Of a stretch of 34,266 nt of DNA, positions 11,498 through 34,102 are shown in pieces. How positions within the stretch are numbered: the stretch's first letter is position 1; the number at the start of each line of letters is the position of its first letter. The notes beneath the pieces were generated by a model that worked only from the letters and a program-made list of their open reading frames with translations, did not search any database and was not told the origin of the DNA. Made by a program: the position numbers and the translations under genes. The stretch is from a virus: IMG/VR virus record IMGVR_UViG_2162886015_000032, positions 1-34,266 of that record; one strand, 5' to 3'.

Positions 11498-13888
11498 TTG
11501 GCTGACACGCTCGCCGTCCTCGCGGCGAGGATCGCCACCCTGGAGCGTCTGGTGCGTGACCTGTCGCGTACGAGCCGCCTGGCGAACTCCTCGATCGAGA
11601 ACGGCTCCATCGCGGTCTACGACGACGGCGGCCTGCTGCGCGGCAGCATCGGCATACAGCCGGACGGCACAGTGGCGTTGGCAGCTGTCAACGGACCCAC
11701 CCCGCCCGTCCCCACCGCCCCCACCACCGCCTCCGTCCGCGGGGGTGTCGCCGTCTCCTGGGACGGGAAGTTCACCGACGGTAGCCAGGCCCCGGCCGAC
11801 TTCGCCAGTGTGGAGGTCCATTTCTCCACCGGAGCCGACTTCCCCGACGGCGGCTCCTTGTTCGCCGCGTTCTACTCGGCGCAGGGTCAGACGATGACCG
11901 TGCCCGCAGGTGGGCCCGTGTGGGTGCGCCTTGTCTGCGTGTCTACGTCCGGTAAGGCCTCCGAACCGTCCGCTGCGGCGGGTCCGGCCGGTCCGTCCCC
12001 GGTGGTCGCGCAGGAGGTGCTGGCCGGTGTCATTACAGAACTGTCGCTGGCCGACGGGGCGGTCACGCAGGCCAAGATCGAGGCGGGGGCGGTGGACGGT
12101 ACTGCTCTGGCTGATGGTGCGGTCACCACGCCGAAGCTGGTCGCGGGTGAGATCGACGGCCTCGTGCTGGCCGCCGGAACGGTCAACGCCGACCGGCTCG
12201 TTGCCGCAAGCATCACCGCGGCCCAGATCAAGGCCCTGAGCGTCACCGGTGACCGGCTCGTCGCCAACACGGTCACCGCTGACCAGTTGGCCGTCGGGAC
12301 GATCACCGCAGCGTCGGGTGTGATCTCCTCGATCGATGCCACTGTGATCACCGTTGGGAAGATCAAGGCGACGCAGATCGACGCGACGAACCTGGTGATC
12401 TCGGCCGCCAACGTCAATGGTGCGGTCGCCTCCGCGACCACGGCGGGCAGCGCCAGCACGGTGACCGGTTCGATCGGTGCCGGGGTGAGCATCCCGCCGA
12501 CCCAGATGGGAGCAGGCCAGATACCGCAGGCCACCACGATCAACGGCGCCTCGGTTCTGACAGGCACCCTGGACGCGGCCACCATCAAGGCCGGAACGAT
12601 CTCCGTCGACCGGCTGACGGCCGGCCTGGGTGGGCAGCTCGGACAGAAGTGGTACGACTTCGGCGACTCAGCGTCGAGGTGGCTGAACTCGGCATCGGGC
12701 ACGATGACGACGGTCCCGGTGGCCGACGCCCAGTCCGGCGGCAACGTGATGCGGTGCGCTGGGTTCGTACAGGGTGCCTACCGGCCCGATGTGAAGGTCC
12801 CCTTCGATCCGTCAGTGACCTACCGGGTCAGCGTTCGGGTGCGGCAGACCGTCGCCAACTCGACGCCCGGCGCGAACCAGAAGCTGTACGCGGGGGTAGC
12901 GGGGCTGGCCGCCGACAGCGTCACCTTCGTCAACAGCTCCGGGGCGAACTCGCTCTCCAGCCAGTTCTATGTGGCAGCCGACTCCCGGGACCTGACCCCC
13001 GACGCGGGCTGGGTGACGTACACCGGCTACATCAAGGGCACCACAGCCAGCCCTGTCAGAGCGGAGACACCGAACGCCAACGCGCCCGCCCAATTGCACT
13101 CCAGCGTCCGCTACATCACCCCGGTCTTGTACCTGAACTATCAAGGTGGCTCGGGCACGGCCGAGGTGGACATGTTCGCCGTCGAGGTTGTGGAGGCGGG
13201 AGGCATCACCGCGAGCAACGTCACGGCCGGCGCCATCGACGGGCAAACAATCACCGGGGCCGTCGTCCAGTCCGTGCGCAGCGACGGCTCGGTGGCCGCG
13301 GTGATGGCGCCCAACCTCGGCGACGGCAGCGCCGGATTCCAGACCACCTCCGCCGACGGCGAGACGTTCGCACGGCTGGAATCCGGACAGTTGACCTTCG
13401 GCGTTGCAGGGGTGGAGCAGCTCACACCTACCGGCATCCAGGCCCAGGTTTCCGGCGCCACTTTGGATATCCAGTCCGGCGCCATCGGCACCGGGGCGCA
13501 GGCGCACATCATTCTCGCCAGCGCGGACAGCCCGCTCGCATCAGGGGACGGTGCACCGTTCATCTCCCTGGAGTGGGACGGTGACAGCGGTCCCAGCAAC
13601 GCGGACATGGTGGTCGACGTGGACGGGTTGCTCAAGCCCCGGAACTTCCTCTGGGGGCGCGTCACGATCACGCCCTCGGCGGCCAACACGCCGACATCCC
13701 TGACAGTGACCGGGCTCCACCTGCGAGGCAAAACCTTTCGCGGCCTGGCCTCGGCGGTCACAACCGTCCCCGGAACACAGGTCCTCGGCGTCAGCTGTTC
13801 AAGCGTCACCGCGGCGTCCGCCACGTTCTGTGTGACGCGAACCAATACGACCCCGACTGTCATCGACTACCTACTGATCGGAGGCTGA
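11498..13888 (+). CDS. Large tail fibre / receptor-binding protein
   Basis: 796 residues from TTG at 11498, ten bases after GGAGG. An N-terminal helix (ARIATLERLVRDLSR) is followed by a fibronectin-III-like domain around 68-160 (VRGGVAVSWDGKF). Residues about 180-300 are a run of short repeats (GAVTQAKIEAGAVDGTALA, TVNADRLVAASITAAQIKA, LSVTGDRLVANTVTADQL) typical of trimeric beta-helical fibre shafts. A likely carbohydrate-binding module lies around 380-560 and a beta-rich tip at the C-terminus. It is probably the host-recognition fibre contacting the mycelial surface. The receptor cannot be read from sequence. Confidence 0.85.
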   Translation: MADTLAVLAARIATLERLVRDLSRTSRLANSSIENGSIAVYDDGGLLRGSIGIQPDGTVALAAVNGPTPPVPTAPTTASVRGGVAVSWDGKFTDGSQAPADFASVEVHFSTGADFPDGGSLFAAFYSAQGQTMTVPAGGPVWVRLVCVSTSGKASEPSAAAGPAGPSPVVAQEVLAGVITELSLADGAVTQAKIEAGAVDGTALADGAVTTPKLVAGEIDGLVLAAGTVNADRLVAASITAAQIKALSVTGDRLVANTVTADQLAVGTITAASGVISSIDATVITVGKIKATQIDATNLVISAANVNGAVASATTAGSASTVTGSIGAGVSIPPTQMGAGQIPQATTINGASVLTGTLDAATIKAGTISVDRLTAGLGGQLGQKWYDFGDSASRWLNSASGTMTTVPVADAQSGGNVMRCAGFVQGAYRPDVKVPFDPSVTYRVSVRVRQTVANSTPGANQKLYAGVAGLAADSVTFVNSSGANSLSSQFYVAADSRDLTPDAGWVTYTGYIKGTTASPVRAETPNANAPAQLHSSVRYITPVLYLNYQGGSGTAEVDMFAVEVVEAGGITASNVTAGAIDGQTITGAVVQSVRSDGSVAAVMAPNLGDGSAGFQTTSADGETFARLESGQLTFGVAGVEQLTPTGIQAQVSGATLDIQSGAIGTGAQAHIILASADSPLASGDGAPFISLEWDGDSGPSNADMVVDVDGLLKPRNFLWGRVTITPSAANTPTSLTVTGLHLRGKTFRGLASAVTTVPGTQVLGVSCSSVTAASATFCVTRTNTTPTVIDYLLIGG

Positions 13889-14160: not shown

Positions 14161-14520
14161 GTGACACAGCCGCCGAGTGCCGAGCCCACCCTGTGGGAAC
14201 TGCACCGCGCCATGGCGCAGTTGCGTGAGGACCAGCGCGGTGGGATCGCCCAACTCCGTGTTGACCTGCGTGCCGACCTTGCCGCGCTGGCCGGGCGCCT
14301 GGACCAGGTCGTCACAGAAGACGTCTATCGGGCCGACCAGCGGACCGTGCTCCAGCGTCTGGAGACCCTGGAGCGCGATCTCACCGCGGCGCAGCGGCAG
14401 CGCGAAGAAGATCAGGCTCAGCAGACCACAAACCGCCGCCTGATCATCTCCGCGTTCGTCGCCCCGCTGGTGGTCTACGCACTCCAGCTGTGGCAGGCAT
14501 CGCGCGGCGCCAGCCCGTAG
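14161..14520 (+). CDS. Coiled-coil protein with C-terminal membrane anchor, lysis-module position
   Basis: 119 residues from GTG, preceded by AAGGAG at a good spacing. Residues about 10-90 are heptad-like (LHRAMAQLREDQ, LDQVVTEDVYRADQRTVLQRLETLERDL). Residues about 95-112 (LIISAFVAPLVVYALQLW) form one transmembrane helix. This architecture occurs in actinophage proteins encoded just before endolysins and may assist holin function or membrane disruption. It could also be a minor virion component. No motif proves a lysis role. The preceding 90 bases have only a weak TAGACT -10-like sequence. Confidence 0.7.
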   Translation: MTQPPSAEPTLWELHRAMAQLREDQRGGIAQLRVDLRADLAALAGRLDQVVTEDVYRADQRTVLQRLETLERDLTAAQRQREEDQAQQTTNRRLIISAFVAPLVVYALQLWQASRGASP

Positions 14521-14587: not shown

Positions 14588-15451
14588 ATGACAGTAAGAG
14601 GAATCGACGTCGCCTCGTACCAGGCGACCGACTACAGCACTCGCGGACTCGACTTCGCGTTCATCAAGATCACCGAGGGCACCACCTACACGAATCCGAA
14701 GTGGGTCGCGGAGCGCAAGACCGCCCGCGATGCCGACCTGGTCACCGGCTTCTACCACTTCATCCGGCCTGGCGACGTGACCAAGCAGGCCGACTACTTC
14801 CTGTCGAAGATCACACTCCGCGCCGGCGACATTCTCGCCCTCGACTGGGAAGACCCGGGGGTGAGTTGCGTCCAGAAGGACGCCTGGATCAAGTACGTCC
14901 AGAAGAAGGCGCCCAGCCACCGGGTGATCCTCTACTGCAACTACGACTTCTGGACCAACCGCGAGACGACCTCGTTCGCGGGCGACGGCCTGTGGATCGC
15001 CCACTACAACGGCAAGCCCGGCAACCCCGGCATCAAGGCGTCGTGGCGCTTCCACCAGTACACCAGCACCCCGATCGACACGAACGTCGGCAACTTCACG
15101 GACAAGGCTGCACTCCGTGCCTGGGCCGGGTCATCGTCCGGCGGGACCGGATCGACGCCCAAGCCGAAACCGTCCAAGCCCGCGTACGTTCCGCCGGCGT
15201 TCCCGGCCCGGCTCGCGCCCGGCAAGAGCAGCCCGTCGGCGAAGCCGCTGCAGAAGACACTGCGCGCCGCCGGGTTCCTGCACATTGCCGAAGCGGACCT
15301 GTCGGACACGTACGGCCCGCGCACACAGGCCGGTGTGGGCCGCTTCTTCGATGCGCACCCGCAGTTCCGCGCCAAGGGCAAGACGCACGACGTGGCGATC
15401 GGGCCGCACGGCTGGGCGTTCCTCTTCACCCTCGCCTACGGCCGTAAGTGA
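14588..15451 (+). CDS. Endolysin, GH25 family lysozyme with cell-wall-binding domain
   Basis: 287 residues. The N-terminal 180 residues are a glycoside hydrolase 25 domain: GIDVASYQ at 5-12 with D7, FIKITEG, GFYHFIRPGD, and the catalytic LDWED with D86 and E88. It should hydrolyse the beta-1,4 bond between N-acetylmuramic acid and N-acetylglucosamine. A Ser/Gly/Pro/Lys linker (about 182-200) leads to a C-terminal domain of about 80 residues with PLQKTLRAAGFL and YGPRTQAGVGRFFDAHP, a peptidoglycan-binding-like fold. No signal peptide is present, so it relies on a holin, and a holin-like gene follows at 15680. No strong Shine-Dalgarno is seen before ATG 14588. Confidence 0.93.
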   Translation: MTVRGIDVASYQATDYSTRGLDFAFIKITEGTTYTNPKWVAERKTARDADLVTGFYHFIRPGDVTKQADYFLSKITLRAGDILALDWEDPGVSCVQKDAWIKYVQKKAPSHRVILYCNYDFWTNRETTSFAGDGLWIAHYNGKPGNPGIKASWRFHQYTSTPIDTNVGNFTDKAALRAWAGSSSGGTGSTPKPKPSKPAYVPPAFPARLAPGKSSPSAKPLQKTLRAAGFLHIAEADLSDTYGPRTQAGVGRFFDAHPQFRAKGKTHDVAIGPHGWAFLFTLAYGRK

Positions 15452-15458
15452 GAACCCG

Positions 15459-15677
15459 GTGGATGCCGCAGACGTCATTCGCCGGTTCACGTTCCATCCG
15501 GCCGAGACCGCCGAGCGCCGCCAGGCCCACGAGGACATTCGGTCCGGGTGCCTGGAGCTGGCGCTGATGCTGCACGCGGAGCTGCCCGCCGGCGCGGAGA
15601 AGCAGGCGGCGATGTTCCGTCTCGAAGAGGCCATGTTCTGGGCGACCGCTGCGATCGCCCGCCAATCAAGGGAGTGA
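15459..15677 (+). CDS. Acb2/Tad1-hairpin family protein, putative anti-CBASS sponge
   Basis: 72 residues from GTG at 15459; the frame upstream lies within the lysin gene. The sequence has the features I associate with the Acb2 family: F-x-F-H-P at 10-14, a helix with H24 and I27-R28, an LP turn at 42-43, then E47-K48 and RLEEAMFWATAAIAR at 54-68. Acb2 proteins from other phages bind cyclic di- and trinucleotides and so block CBASS immunity. Family membership is by motif recognition; the nucleotide-binding role here is inferred. The gene lies between endolysin and holin-like gene with seven bases on one side and two on the other, and no good Shine-Dalgarno. Confidence 0.72.
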   Translation: MDAADVIRRFTFHPAETAERRQAHEDIRSGCLELALMLHAELPAGAEKQAAMFRLEEAMFWATAAIARQSRE

Positions 15678-15679
15678 GA

Positions 15680-15925
15680 GTGCTCTACAACTATCTGCTG
15701 TCGGTGGTGCGGACCTTCGGTCCGGTCGTCGCCGGTTGGCTGATCACCCAGGCGCTGCGCCTGGGCGTGCACCTGGACGGTCCCGAGCTGGTGTCGCTGA
15801 TGACAGTGGGGTTCGCCATGGCCTACTACGCGGTGTTCCGTCTGGCGGAGCTGCACCTCAGCCGCCGCTTCGGGTGGATGCTGGGCTGGGCGGCGCCGCC
15901 CGACTACCAGAACCCGCAGGGCTGA
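15680..15925 (+). CDS. Holin-like membrane protein
   Basis: 81 residues from GTG at 15680, five bases after AAGGGAG; GTG at 15674 is an in-frame alternative. Two hydrophobic helices are visible: about residues 8-28 (VVRTFGPVVAGWLITQALRL) and about 39-59 (LVSLMTVGFAMAYYAVFRLA). A charged and Trp-containing tail (HLSRRFGWMLGWAAPPDY) follows. Size, topology and location after the endolysin fit a holin that releases the lysin across the membrane. A strong terminator follows, so it closes the late operon. Confidence 0.8.
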   Translation: MLYNYLLSVVRTFGPVVAGWLITQALRLGVHLDGPELVSLMTVGFAMAYYAVFRLAELHLSRRFGWMLGWAAPPDYQNPQG

Positions 15926-15942
15926 GACGGCCCCGGAATGAC

Positions 15943-15972
15943 CAAAGCCCCCACTGCCCAGTGGGGGCTTTG
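15943..15972 (+). terminator. Strong bidirectional terminator ending the late operon
   Basis: Perfect 14-base inverted repeat (15943-15956 and 15959-15972) with AAAG/CTTT at the base and a 2-base centre. It lies 18 bases after the holin stop codon. Confidence 0.9.
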
Positions 15973-15973
15973 A

Positions 15974-16066
15974 CCTCTTGGAGGGCTCAAGCCTAACAGC
16001 GGCTGAAGACGGGGTCCCTGAGCGCGCCAGTTAGAATCTAAGGGCAGTCCAGTGAGAAGAGGAGCC
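15974..16066 (+). promoter_or_regulatory. Leader with orphan CCTCTTGGAG element and TAGAAT -10 box
   Basis: CCTCTTGGAG at 15975-15984 is the same ribosome-binding element used by many early genes, but no start codon follows it, so it may mark a deleted gene. TAGAAT at 16032-16037, followed by CTAAG, resembles the TAGAATAAGAG early promoters but lacks a recognisable -35. It is the likely promoter of the gene at 16068, perhaps needing an activator. Confidence 0.45.
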
Positions 16067-16067
16067 C

Positions 16068-16628
16068 GTGGTGGCGAAGAAGCCGTTCCTGGTCGGCAGG
16101 CAGGAGTTCGCCGCCCTGTACGGGGTGCAGCCGACGCAGGTCACGCAGTGGGTGGCGCGAGGTGTTTTGGACTACGACTGTGCGGTGATCGTGTCGGGGT
16201 CGCCGTATTGGCTGCTGTCGTTCGTGCGCGGGTTCGGGCAGATGACGCCGCGGCCCAAGGCGCTGAACGAGACGGAGCTGCAGCGGCTCGTGGCCGAGCA
16301 GGAGCCCGGGGAGTGGGCGCGCAGCGTGGAGGGTCTTCCTCCGTTGCTGGGTCTGCAGGAGGCGACGGCGCTCTTCGGCCTGTCCAGTCAACAGAACCTG
16401 TCGGCGGTGGTGAGGCAGGGCCGGTTCGCGTCGGCGGACTATCAGCTGTCGGGTTCGCCGCTGTGGCTGCTTGACACACTGATCCAGGCCGCGCCGGAGA
16501 TCCAGGCGAAGTCCCGCAGCGTGGTGTGGGCGGTCGTGCCGCAGGTCGAGGCGGCGCTGCGGCAGGGCCGCTACAACGGACCCGGTTCTGTGATTGCCCC
16601 GCGCGGACGTGCCGCAAAGGCCCTCTGA
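16068..16628 (+). CDS. DNA-binding protein with two tandem helix-turn-helix domains
   Basis: 186 residues from GTG, with GAGGAG upstream. The protein contains an internal duplication. Copy one spans about residues 9-55 (EFAALYGVQPTQVTQWVARG, then SGSPYWLL at 43-50). Copy two spans about 95-140 (EATALFGLSSQQNLSAVVRQG, then SGSPLWLL at 128-135). Each copy looks like a MerR/excisionase-type winged helix whose wing carries the SGSP-WLL signature. It is the first gene after the late terminator and lies beside the first early promoter, so I infer a regulator of phage transcription or an excisionase-like architectural protein. The target site is unknown. Confidence 0.72.
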   Translation: MVAKKPFLVGRQEFAALYGVQPTQVTQWVARGVLDYDCAVIVSGSPYWLLSFVRGFGQMTPRPKALNETELQRLVAEQEPGEWARSVEGLPPLLGLQEATALFGLSSQQNLSAVVRQGRFASADYQLSGSPLWLLDTLIQAAPEIQAKSRSVVWAVVPQVEAALRQGRYNGPGSVIAPRGRAAKAL

Positions 16629-22898: not shown

Positions 22899-24446
22899 TT
22901 GTTGGCCACTTTTCCCCGCGACATCGAGCTGACGTTCAACGACCTGCTCGCCGGGGCCGGCGGGTCCTCCTCCGGCCTGGTGGAGGCTGGATGGCGCGGC
23001 AAGCTCGCCATGAACCACTGGCAGACGGCGATGGACTCCCACGCCGCCAACCACCCCAACATCGAGCACCTGACCGCCGACGTCACCGGCTATCCGATGC
23101 GGTTCCTGCCCCGCGCCCTGCTGTTGTGGGCGTCGATCATCTGCACCGAGGTCAGCCCGGCCGGCGGCAATATTCACCCCACCGATCAGCTCGACCTATT
23201 CGATGTCCTCGAACACCTCGACGACGACGAGGCGGAGGACTGGGAGGCGCTGACCCCGGAAGCGTTCGAGAGGACCCGGGCCACGGCGTGGTGCGTCGTG
23301 AGGGCCTGCGAGGCCAAGCGGTTCCCGTACGTCGTGATCGAAAACGTCGTCGAATTCGCCCTGCTCTGGGTCAACTTCAAGTCCTGGGTCAAGGCGTTGA
23401 AGGAGCAGAGCTACGAGGCACCTCAGATTCTGAGCGTCACCTCCGCACACATCGGCGACGACGACAACCTGCGGGCCCCGCAATGGAGGGACCGCATTTA
23501 CATCGTCTTCCGCCTCAAGGGCATGCCCAAACCGGACTTGCAGCCCCGCCCACTGGCGTTCTGCTTCGAGTGCGGCAAAGACGTGCACGCGAAGCAGGTG
23601 TTCTTCGATCTCGGCGTTCGTGTCGGCAAGTACAGGCGCGACTACAGCTACCGCTGCCCCAACAGGCGTTGCCGTCACGCCGAGGTCGAGCCCTACGTGC
23701 GCCCGGCCGCTTCCGTCATCAACTGGGACGACCTCGGCCAGCGCATCGGCGACCGCAAGAAACCCCTGGTGGAGACCACCATGGACCGCATCCGCGCGGG
23801 CCTGGCCAAGTTCCCCCATCAGCCGTCCTCCATCACCGTCAACCACGGCAAGGACGGCACCGACCGGGCATACGCGGTGGCCGAGCGGCCGTTTTCCACC
23901 CGCACCATCAAACAGGGAGACGCGCTGCTCGTGCCGACCGGCGGCAGCTGGAACACCGCGTGCAGCGACGTCGCCGACCCGATGCGTACCCGGCTGACCC
24001 GCGAGAGCGAGGCCCTGGTCACAGTCGACGCCGAGCCGTTTGTGATCACCTACCGGCAAAATGCCAACCCGGCCTTGGCGACCGAGCCGATCACCAGCGT
24101 GACCGCCCAGGGCAACCATCACGGTCTAGTCGTCCCCGGCGGGGCCGTCCCGCCCGGTCTGCGCAACACCCTCGTCATCCCCTACCGCAAGGCCACCGTC
24201 AAGACGGCCGCCGAGCCCGTTCACACACTGTCCACCCGCGACTCGGCCGCACTCCTGAACACCGCGCCCGCCGTGGAGAGCTGCCACTTCCGGATGCTCA
24301 AACCGCGCGAGCAACTGGGAGCCCAGCGGTTCCACGACCGGTACGTCGTCCTCGGCACCCAGGCCGAGCAGACCATGCAGGGCGGGAATGCGGTGTCGGT
24401 CAACGTGGCCCGGCATATCGGCGAGTGCATCAAAGCAGTCCTGTGA
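22899..24446 (+). CDS. DNA cytosine-5 methyltransferase
   Basis: 515 residues from TTG 22899 (TTG 22902 is possible), with CTGGGAG upstream. Motif I is LLAGAGGSSSGL at 16-27. The catalytic loop is IICTEVSPAGG with C82, replacing the usual PCQ. Motif VI is ENV at 148-150, motif VIII is QWRDR at 195-199, and the late motif GNAVSVNVARHI is near the C-terminus. A zinc-binding insert has C222-x2-C225 and a CPNRRC pair. Residues 97-101 read QLDLF, a possible beta-clamp-binding peptide. It probably methylates cytosine at a specific site to protect phage DNA from host restriction. All core motifs are present, so activity is likely. No partner endonuclease is visible. Confidence 0.85.
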   Translation: MLATFPRDIELTFNDLLAGAGGSSSGLVEAGWRGKLAMNHWQTAMDSHAANHPNIEHLTADVTGYPMRFLPRALLLWASIICTEVSPAGGNIHPTDQLDLFDVLEHLDDDEAEDWEALTPEAFERTRATAWCVVRACEAKRFPYVVIENVVEFALLWVNFKSWVKALKEQSYEAPQILSVTSAHIGDDDNLRAPQWRDRIYIVFRLKGMPKPDLQPRPLAFCFECGKDVHAKQVFFDLGVRVGKYRRDYSYRCPNRRCRHAEVEPYVRPAASVINWDDLGQRIGDRKKPLVETTMDRIRAGLAKFPHQPSSITVNHGKDGTDRAYAVAERPFSTRTIKQGDALLVPTGGSWNTACSDVADPMRTRLTRESEALVTVDAEPFVITYRQNANPALATEPITSVTAQGNHHGLVVPGGAVPPGLRNTLVIPYRKATVKTAAEPVHTLSTRDSAALLNTAPAVESCHFRMLKPREQLGAQRFHDRYVVLGTQAEQTMQGGNAVSVNVARHIGECIKAVL

Positions 24447-32771: not shown

Positions 32772-33080
32772 CTGAGGTCGACGGCTGCGGTTCGTAGATG
32801 GTGCGGTCGTGGAGCATCGCGAAGATAACGTCAGCCCAGCGTCGTGCGAGGCATAGCAGGCCTGGGTGTGGTGCTTGCCCTGAGCGATCTTCTTGTCGTA
32901 GTAGGCCCGCGATGCCGGATCGCCCAGGGCGGTGAAAGCGGAGAGGAAGAAGGCCCGCTTGAGCTGCTTGTTTCCCCTGCGGGAGGGCTGATCACCCCGG
33001 ATCGACGACCCCGAGCTCCGGGTCGCCGGGGCGAGACCCGCGTAGGCGGCGAGGTGGCCTGCGGTCGGGAAGCGGCTAGC
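32764..33080 (-). pseudogene. IS110-family transposase, C-terminal fragment
   Basis: The minus strand encodes FPTAGHLAAYAGLAPATRSSG, SSIRGDQPSRRGNKQLKRAF and so on to LHDRTIYEPQPSTSVT and a stop at 32764-32766. This is the transposase IS116/IS110/IS902 C-terminal domain. A single base is missing around 32864 (between HHTQA and LLCLARR), causing a frameshift, and the 5' end is cut by the IS481 insertion. The protein is dead. Confidence 0.82.
33075..33080. repeat. Target-site duplication GCTAGC, left copy
   Basis: GCTAGC adjoins the left inverted repeat and reappears at 34133-34138. The TAG inside it is the stop codon of the transposase gene read on the minus strand. Confidence 0.85.
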
Positions 33081-34032
33081 TGTATTGACCCGCAGCGTTG
33101 TTCACACGGCTGATGGGTGGCTGGCCTCCGAGGGCGGTGTGGCAGCGATGGTAGTTGTAGCCGTGGAGGAAGTCGTCCAGGGCGGCCGTGCGTTCGTCGT
33201 TGCTGGTGTAGGGCCGCAGGTAGGCCCATTCGTCGAGCAGGGTGCGGTTGAAGCGTTCGACCTTGCCGTTGGTCTGCGGCCGGTAGGCGCGCGTCAGCTT
33301 TCCGGTCGCGCCGAGTTCGGCGAGGGCCTGTTTCCAGGCCAGGCCCTTGCGGTAGGCCCAGGCGTTGTCGGTGAGCACGCGTTCGATGCGGGTGATGCCG
33401 TGCGTGTGGAAGAACGCAGCCGCGCGGGTGAGGAAGCCCGCGCAGGTGGCGACCTTCTCGTCCGGGTGGATCTCGCTGTAGGCGAGACGACTGTGGTCGT
33501 CGACGGCGGAGTGGACATAGTCGAAGCCCATTTTGCTGCGGGTGGCCCGGCCGGCCTGGCGGCCCAGCACCTTGTGGCCGCCGCCGTCCGGGATCCGGCC
33601 GAGTTTCTTGACGTCGACGTGCAGGAGCTCGCCGGGCCGGTCGCGTTCGTAGCGGCGGATGACCTGGCCGGTGGGCCGGTCCAGGTGGGCCAGGCGGTTC
33701 AGGCCGTGGCGGGTCAGGATCCGGTGGATGGTCGAGGCGGGCAGGCCCAGGATCGGGCCGAGCCGTGCGGGACCGAGTTTGCGGGCCTGCCGCAGCCGGC
33801 AGACCCGGGCCTCCAGGGCCGCAGGTGTGCGATGCGGTGTCGTCCGGGGCCGGCTGGAGCGGTCGGCGAGGCCCGGTTCGCCCTCGTCCCGCCAGCGGCG
33901 GACCCACTTGTGGGCCGTGGCTCGGGAGACGCCCATCTCGGCCGCCACATGAGCGACCGGGCGGCCCGCGCAGACACGTTCGACCAGCAGCCGCCTGCCA
34001 TGAACGGTCAGCCGGGCATTACGGTGGGACAC
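33076..34032 (-). CDS. IS481-family transposase (DDE)
   Basis: 318 residues from GTG at 34032, with GGAGG about six bases upstream on the minus strand; the open frame upstream to 34074 is less likely. An N-terminal helix-turn-helix (VAHVAAEMGVSRATAHKWVRRW) binds the element ends. The rve integrase core has the three acidic residues in LLHVDVKKLG, VLTDNAWAYR and GKVERFNRTL. The C-terminus (DDFLHGYNYHRCHTALGG) is typical of the family. The frame is intact, so the protein may be active. The last codons run through the element end and use TAG from the duplicated target. Confidence 0.93.
   Translation of the reverse strand: MSHRNARLTVHGRRLLVERVCAGRPVAHVAAEMGVSRATAHKWVRRWRDEGEPGLADRSSRPRTTPHRTPAALEARVCRLRQARKLGPARLGPILGLPASTIHRILTRHGLNRLAHLDRPTGQVIRRYERDRPGELLHVDVKKLGRIPDGGGHKVLGRQAGRATRSKMGFDYVHSAVDDHSRLAYSEIHPDEKVATCAGFLTRAAAFFHTHGITRIERVLTDNAWAYRKGLAWKQALAELGATGKLTRAYRPQTNGKVERFNRTLLDEWAYLRPYTSNDERTAALDDFLHGYNYHRCHTALGGQPPISRVNNAAGQYS
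33081..33110 (+). repeat. Left inverted repeat of the IS481 element
   Basis: TGTATTGA, five variable bases, AGCGTTGTT, then ACA. Pairs with the right repeat at 34103-34132. Confidence 0.85.
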
Positions 34033-34102
34033 GAAGACCTCCGTGCGGTGCAGTCCTAGACAGCTCCACCACATCGGAGGTCTTCGCCATGTTCAAGACC
34101 CG

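What the first reader, a model, noticed from the sequence alone, without database searches (positions are those of the whole stretch)
15459..15677. Acb2-like anti-CBASS protein hidden between endolysin and holin-like gene
The 72-residue product has the F-x-F-H-P start and the LEEAMFWATAAIAR C-terminal helix that I associate with the Acb2/Tad1-hairpin family. Those proteins sequester cyclic di- and trinucleotides and block CBASS. Such a gene in a late lysis cassette of an actinomycete element would be a counter-defence expressed late, which is unexpected because CBASS acts before lysis.
Basis: partly seen in the sequence, partly recalled or inferred. Interest (0 to 1): 0.7.

Follow-up and report, generated by a model that had tools for sequence, protein, structure and literature searches.

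The report
Acb2-like sponge gene in lysis operon
A Streptomyces prophage carries, squeezed between its two cell-bursting genes, a small protein of the family that phages use to soak up bacterial alarm molecules; the family is known, but the lysis-gene position recurs in several actinophage lineages and this Streptomyces branch has changed two otherwise near-constant residues, so what it binds needs testing.

Summary
The 72-codon ORF at 15459-15677 (+) is a full-length match to Pfam Acb2_Tad1_hairpin (58/58 positions, 59.1 bits, cut-off 27). AlphaFold gives the Acb2-type protomer: a short helix, then a long helical hairpin. The ORF is under purifying selection. It lies 7 nt after a GH25 endolysin and 2 nt before a holin-like gene, ahead of a strong hairpin. 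It is a single domain, so Acb2-like rather than Tad1-like.

(1) The placement is not a one-off. At least 22 of 107 dereplicated relatives sit beside lysis genes, with unrelated endolysin types in Streptomyces, Mycobacterium, Gordonia/Rhodococcus and Tsukamurella phages. (2) The Streptomyces clade (8 of 8) replaces two near-invariant residues: R46 to A and T53 to F. The second equals T4 Acb2 T68, where T68M is reported to lower binding. The aromatic and basic ligand residues (F12, R28) and the hexamer-interface alanines are kept.

Best reading: a divergent Acb2-family cyclic-oligonucleotide sponge, expressed with the late lysis operon against CBASS. Ligand binding, hexamer and anti-CBASS activity are untested, and ligand range may have shifted.

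The parts
15459..15677 (+). Acb2-like single-domain hairpin protein, 72 aa, GTG start
   Evidence: PF24729 58/58, 59.1 bits; PHROG 1454 E 8e-24; AF2 pLDDT 87.7, helices 3-10, 21-41, 46-68; dN/dS below 1
14588..15451 (+). Endolysin, GH25 domain with weak C-terminal PG_binding_1
   Evidence: PF01183 E 1.2e-34; PHROG 291 endolysin E 1e-39; stop codon 7 nt before the acb2 start
15680..15925 (+). Small hydrophobic holin-like protein, 81 aa; start 2 nt after the acb2 stop, with AAGGGAG (15668-15674) inside the end of acb2
   Evidence: no Pfam match; PHROG 10742 unknown function; transmembrane stretches predicted in orthologues, best hydropathy 1.57 in the window copy
15943..15972 (+). 13-bp perfect inverted repeat CAAAGCCCCCACT/AGTGGGGGCTTTG, probable end of the late operon (no T tract)
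   Evidence: MFE -36.2 kcal/mol, z -4.5, for 15926-15990; not called by the U-tract scan
14161..14520 (+). 119-aa protein upstream of the endolysin, unknown function, possible further lysis-module member
   Evidence: PHROG 38457 unknown function E 8e-9; only a sub-threshold Rz-like match
11498..13888 (+). tail/virion structural protein, end of the tail block in the same direction
   Evidence: weak PHROG virion structural and tail matches
16068..16628 (+). DNA-binding (HTH-like) protein, first gene after the inverted repeat
   Evidence: PHROG 597 DNA-binding E 3e-5; same gene follows in L002, L003, L018

Best explanation
The gene encodes a divergent member of the Acb2/Tad1-hairpin family, of the single-domain Acb2 kind. 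It probably assembles through helices 2 and 3 into a hexamer and soaks up cyclic oligonucleotide alarm signals made by CBASS-type cyclases. It is most likely transcribed with the tail and lysis genes, and translated with the endolysin upstream and the holin-like gene downstream. It would therefore be absent in the lysogen and abundant late in the lytic cycle, blocking the effector that would kill the cell before the burst. Shown here: family membership, predicted fold, purifying selection, gene order, recurrence of the lysis-gene position, and the clade-specific R46A and T53F changes. Inferred: oligomer, ligand, timing and anti-CBASS action. The two substitutions lie on the face of helix 3 opposite the hexamer interface, so the likeliest consequence is a changed ligand range rather than loss of assembly.
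For: PF24729 full-length match over cut-off; T4 Acb2 (Vs.4) matches the same model at 71 bits. A profile of 16 relatives finds the solved 'Acb2 homolog 43' (9ptq) at E 6.5e-11 and Tad1 at E 4e-4. AF2 pLDDT 87.7, short helix plus long hairpin, as described for Acb2 protomers (PMC10419184, PMC12043709). The top named viral structure matches are annotated Acb2/Tad1 hairpin. Mapping to T4 Acb2: Y8 to F12 and K23 to R28 (aromatic and basic character kept); hexamer residues L29, A66, A73, A77 to L34, A51, A58, A62 kept (residues from PMC10097602). dN/dS 0.13-0.52. Endolysin, acb2 and holin-like gene 7 and 2 nt apart, with the same order in all eight clade members. Targets exist in the host genus: SMODS cyclases in 39 of 295 and SAVED sensors in 23 of 295 Streptomyces genomes, often within about 3 kb of each other.
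Against: A46 and F53 replace residues kept in 69/69 and 66/69 other relatives; T68M at the F53 position is reported to lower T4 Acb2 binding (PMC12657230). T4 ligand residues F82, R79 and H11 are not kept, although F82 and R79 are missing in the whole actinophage group too. No solved Acb2 structure was among the Foldseek or VIA matches (inconclusive for a small helical model). Lysogens carrying this family mostly lack a SMODS cyclase (2 of 18 have one), which says nothing about other hosts. No expression data.
Confidence: 0.66

Rival explanations
1. Sponge retuned to another ligand: the Acb2 fold is kept, but A46 and F53 shift it away from classical CBASS signals, either to another defence nucleotide or to avoid decoy signals of Panoptes-type guards.
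For: Two substitutions exclusive to the clade (8/8) at positions otherwise near-invariant and shared with Tad1 and 9ptq. They fall on the same helix-3 face as T4 R79, opposite the hexamer face. The clade has a long stem (0.65 changes per site, 99% SH-aLRT). Retuning away from decoy nucleotides is proposed in PMC12657218.
Against: No ligand data. mCpol (Panoptes) found in only 1 of 295 Streptomyces genomes. Substitution could be neutral or compensated.
Confidence: 0.2
2. Lysis-timing accessory: an Acb2-fold protein that acts on the lysis machinery or on host cyclic dinucleotides (for example c-di-AMP) to set lysis time, not on CBASS.
For: Tightly coupled between endolysin and holin-like gene; recurrent beside lysis genes of several types.
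Against: No transmembrane segment (best hydropathy 0.81). Most relatives lie elsewhere, for example near thyX, RNR or tRNAs, so lysis is not the common role.
Confidence: 0.08
3. Passenger (moron) gene parked at the 3' end of the late operon, with no special reason for the lysis position.
For: The end of a late operon is a tolerant insertion site; acb2 also sits by portal and head genes in Quhwah and Chidiebere.
Against: Purifying selection; recurrent adjacency in unrelated lineages, with 20 of 24 detected lysis hits within 300 nt, though the seeds were drawn from neighbours.
Confidence: 0.06

Closest known systems
T4 Acb2 (Vs.4), PDB 7UQ2
   Same: Same Pfam hairpin domain; aromatic Y8/F12; basic K23/R28; hexamer-interface L29, A66, A73, A77 kept as L34, A51, A58, A62
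   Different: F82, R79 and H11 become A67, A64 and A15; T68 becomes F53; shorter (72 against 88 aa); different PHROG (1454 here; PHROG 717 for Vs.4 in PMC10097602); T4 gene not in a lysis cassette
'Acb2 homolog 43' (PDB 9ptq)
   Same: Nearest solved sequence, entry with 6 chains; similar C-terminal helix (LEEAMFFATKAAA)
   Different: Keeps GREK and KTK where the window has GAEK and MFR
Tad1 (PDB 7uav, 8kbe and others)
   Same: Shares the C-terminal hairpin signature (SRE...ALT.VEEALMW)
   Different: Tad1 has an added N-terminal beta domain and is about 125-138 aa; the window protein is hairpin only
Acb2-like genes of Jace (gp19) and M. abscessus prophage prophi91-3 (gp62)
   Same: 49% identical; also between endolysin or lysin B and holin
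   Different: Unrelated endolysins; keep R46 and T53; annotated only as hypothetical

Membership tests
Acb2/Tad1 hairpin domain (PF24729) | Score over the curated cut-off, full domain | tested here: met
   59.1 bits against 27, positions 1-58 of 58
Acb2 | Single small hairpin protein without the Tad1 beta domain | tested here: met
   72 aa; AF2 shows helices only
Acb2 | Short N-terminal helix plus two long antiparallel helices | tested here: met
   Helices 3-10, 21-41, 46-68, pLDDT 87.7; viral structure matches annotated Acb2/Tad1 hairpin
Acb2 | Match to solved Acb2 structures by fold | tested here: inconclusive
   No Acb2 entry among the Foldseek or VIA rows; small helical model
Acb2 | Ligand-site aromatic and basic residues (T4 Y8, K23) | tested here: met
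   F12 and R28, R28 invariant in 77 sequences
Acb2 | Remaining T4 cGAMP contacts (H11, R79, F82) | tested here: inconclusive
   A15, A64, A67 here; F82 and R79 also absent from the whole actinophage group, and F82 from 9ptq, so probably not defining
Acb2 | Helix-3 Thr (T4 T68) common to T4 Acb2, 9ptq, Tad1 and most relatives | tested here: not met
   F53 in all eight clade members; T in 66/69 others. A conserved residue, not a published membership criterion
Acb2 | Hexamer | not testable with these tools
   Interface residues conserved only
Acb2 | Binds cyclic di- and trinucleotides and blocks CBASS | not testable with these tools
   needs biochemistry and phage assays
Tad1 | N-terminal beta-sheet domain before the hairpin | tested here: not met
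   Only 10 residues precede the hairpin match

The most novel reading that the evidence does not exclude
A lysis-operon branch of the Acb2 family in Streptomyces prophages has been retuned, through R46A and T53F on the ligand face, to a cyclic nucleotide (or class) that classical Acb2 does not bind, and is timed to the lysis stage; the lysis-cassette Acb2 genes of actinophages form a general late counter-defence module.
Probability: 0.2. Interest if true: 0.7.

Novelty: new variant of a known kind. Interest (0 to 1): 0.42.

Why it matters
Cyclic-nucleotide sponges are known mostly from proteobacterial phages. A recurrent sponge gene between endolysin and holin in actinophages would tie counter-defence to lysis timing and gives a simple functional hint for PHROG 1454, a family annotated as unknown function. 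The natural R46A/T53F branch is a ready test of which residues set the ligand range of Acb2 and Tad1 hairpins.

Tried and rejected
Tad1 identity was rejected: no beta domain and too short. Chance ORF was rejected on the profile match, the conservation and dN/dS. Foldseek and VIA searches of the PDB returned only unrelated helical bundles, which is uninformative; the viral library did return the family. NCBIfam has no model for it, nor for T4 Acb2. A PADLOC scan failed on a bad reference and was not repeated. A search for U-tract terminators found none. The primary Acb2 papers on PaMx33 and on trinucleotide binding are not held, so trinucleotide-site residues could not be mapped. No paper in the held library that mentions Acb2 together with holin or endolysin appeared to discuss this placement, judged from titles and abstracts only. 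Co-occurrence with host CBASS was not informative: none of the 6 Acb2-bearing genomes in the Streptomyces sample is among the 39 of 295 with a SMODS hit.

Full report
What is there. The window is a complete virus record of 34,266 bases in which one ORF matches the Acb2/Tad1 hairpin model. The ORF at 15459-15677 (+) begins with GTG, encodes 72 residues and ends with TGA. The endolysin stop codon lies 7 nt before its start. The next gene starts 2 nt after its stop, with AAGGGAG inside the end of acb2. A perfect 13-bp inverted repeat at 15943-15972 follows, without a T tract. The tail genes and the lysis genes up to this point run on the + strand, so one late operon ending after the holin-like gene is the natural reading (inference).

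Family. Pfam PF24729 matches all 58 positions at 59.1 bits against a cut-off of 27. T4 Acb2 (Vs.4) matches the same model at 71 bits. PHROG 1454, listed as unknown function, matches at E 8e-24. A single-sequence search of the PDB gives 'Acb2 homolog 43' weakly (E 0.005); a 16-sequence profile gives it at E 6.5e-11 and Tad1 at E 4e-4. tblastn finds 321 phage records, mainly Mycobacterium, Gordonia and Paenibacillus phages, all under 60% identity, so no close cultured relative appeared (records very near the window's own genome may be left out of that search). In the hits inspected the relatives are nearly all annotated as hypothetical. Automatic annotation does name several as Acb2/Tad1 hairpin, and cultured Microbacterium and Mycobacterium phages have been reported with a putative Acb2 or cyclic-oligonucleotide sequestering protein (PMC13348362, PMC11953737).

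Structure. That is the published description of the Acb2 protomer (PMC10419184). Structure search of the viral library returns the family with probability 1.0, although all its E-values are above 0.001. The PDB searches returned only unrelated helical bundles, which I treat as inconclusive.

Residues. An alignment including T4 Acb2 maps the published contacts (PMC10097602). Y8 becomes F12 and K23 becomes R28, which is invariant in 77 sequences. The hexamer-interface residues L29, A66, A73 and A77 become L34, A51, A58 and A62. H11, R79 and F82 become A15, A64 and A67; the last two are alanine in the whole actinophage and Bacillus group. The window and its seven closest relatives (L002, L003, L004, L017, L018, L019, L062) alone have A46 where 69 of 69 others have R, and F53 where 66 of 69 others have T. 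The F53 position is T4 T68. T68M in phage Bas35 is described as decreasing T4 Acb2 binding affinity (PMC12657230). The same Thr is present in 9ptq and Tad1. On an ideal helix, residues 46, 53 and 64 share one face, and the hexamer alanines 51, 58 and 62 lie 120-160 degrees away. The inference is that assembly is kept and ligand contacts are altered. Whether this concerns the dinucleotide or the trinucleotide site I could not decide, because the papers that define the latter are not held.

Selection. Pairwise dN/dS in the clade is 0.13-0.52. Window against L062 differs at 7, 7 and 20 sites in codon positions 1, 2 and 3. The clade is supported (99% SH-aLRT) on a long stem of 0.65 changes per site. 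That tree has few columns, and more than half of its inner forks are unresolved.

Placement. All eight clade members have an endolysin-like gene upstream and a related small protein downstream. Elsewhere, annotated records show lysin A - lysin B - acb2 - holin in M. abscessus prophage prophi91-3, endolysin - acb2 - holin in Jace, and acb2 - endolysin in Streptomyces phage KimJongPhill. PHROG scans of neighbours in genome and uncultured virus records add endolysins of several types and holins. In 107 loci dereplicated at 90% protein identity, 22 have a lysis gene within 1.2 kb on the same strand, 20 of them within 300 nt. The seeds for this count came from neighbours of acb2, which biases the distance distribution, while unsampled lysis families make the count a lower bound. 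An estimate free of that bias is 3 of 12 phage types looked at by annotation. A random gene in a phage of 75-120 genes would be expected next to the lysis genes about 4-5% of the time (my estimate, not computed). On the tree the adjacency needs 12 changes, of which starred branches force at least 3, so several independent origins are likely. Many other relatives lie elsewhere, for example near thyX, ribonucleotide reductase or tRNA genes, and two lie by portal genes.

Is late expression surprising? Sponges act by stoichiometry, and Acb2 is reported active at lysogenic induction rather than maintenance (PMC12043709). Escape of acb2-deleted phage through major capsid mutations (PMC10419184) links CBASS to late products, although the wild-type capsid gene alone did not trigger toxicity there. 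Keeping the sponge silent in the lysogen would also avoid guard systems such as Panoptes that are triggered by Acb2 (PMC12657218, PMC12657230), although mCpol was found in only 1 of 295 Streptomyces genomes.

Targets. Of 295 Streptomyces genomes, 39 carry a SMODS cyclase and 23 a SAVED sensor, often within about 3 kb of each other (for example G165, G042, G176, G286, G305). CBASS is therefore present in the host genus. Of 18 genomes carrying an Acb2-like locus, 2 have a SMODS hit.

Verdict. The finding is real: a member of the Acb2/Tad1 hairpin family, single-domain and Acb2-like, in a lysis operon. I do not call it a proven Acb2. Ligand, hexamer and anti-CBASS action are untested, and a conserved residue at a position where substitution is reported to reduce binding has been replaced.

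Noticed in passing
L153:5861-6196 (-) and L020: In Nonomuraea thailandensis a SMODS cyclase hit lies about 15.7 kb from the prophage acb2, roughly 1.8 kb outside the called provirus and about 1.5 kb from a long minus-strand ORF (L153:7672-9108) that looks like an integrase by eye, not by search. A cyclase at the edge of an Acb2-carrying prophage could be a defence/counter-defence pair.
   Followed up: partly
L010 and L011: In Quhwah and Chidiebere the Acb2-like gene follows the portal gene (one small gene apart in Quhwah, overlapping in Chidiebere), so late structural operons are another home for the family besides lysis cassettes.
   Followed up: no
L029, L055: Two separate Acb2-profile hits in the same locus, possibly tandem or fused copies.
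   Followed up: no
window 33076-34074 (-): IS481-type transposase at the right edge of the record, which may mark the end of the element or an insertion.
   Followed up: no
window 22899-24446 (+): C5 cytosine DNA methylase downstream of the lysis genes, a possible second protection against host restriction.
   Followed up: no
L005:567-1310: Gordonia phage Sephiroth carries an annotated nucleotidyltransferase seven features upstream of its acb2-like gene; not checked for CD-NTase kinship.
   Followed up: no
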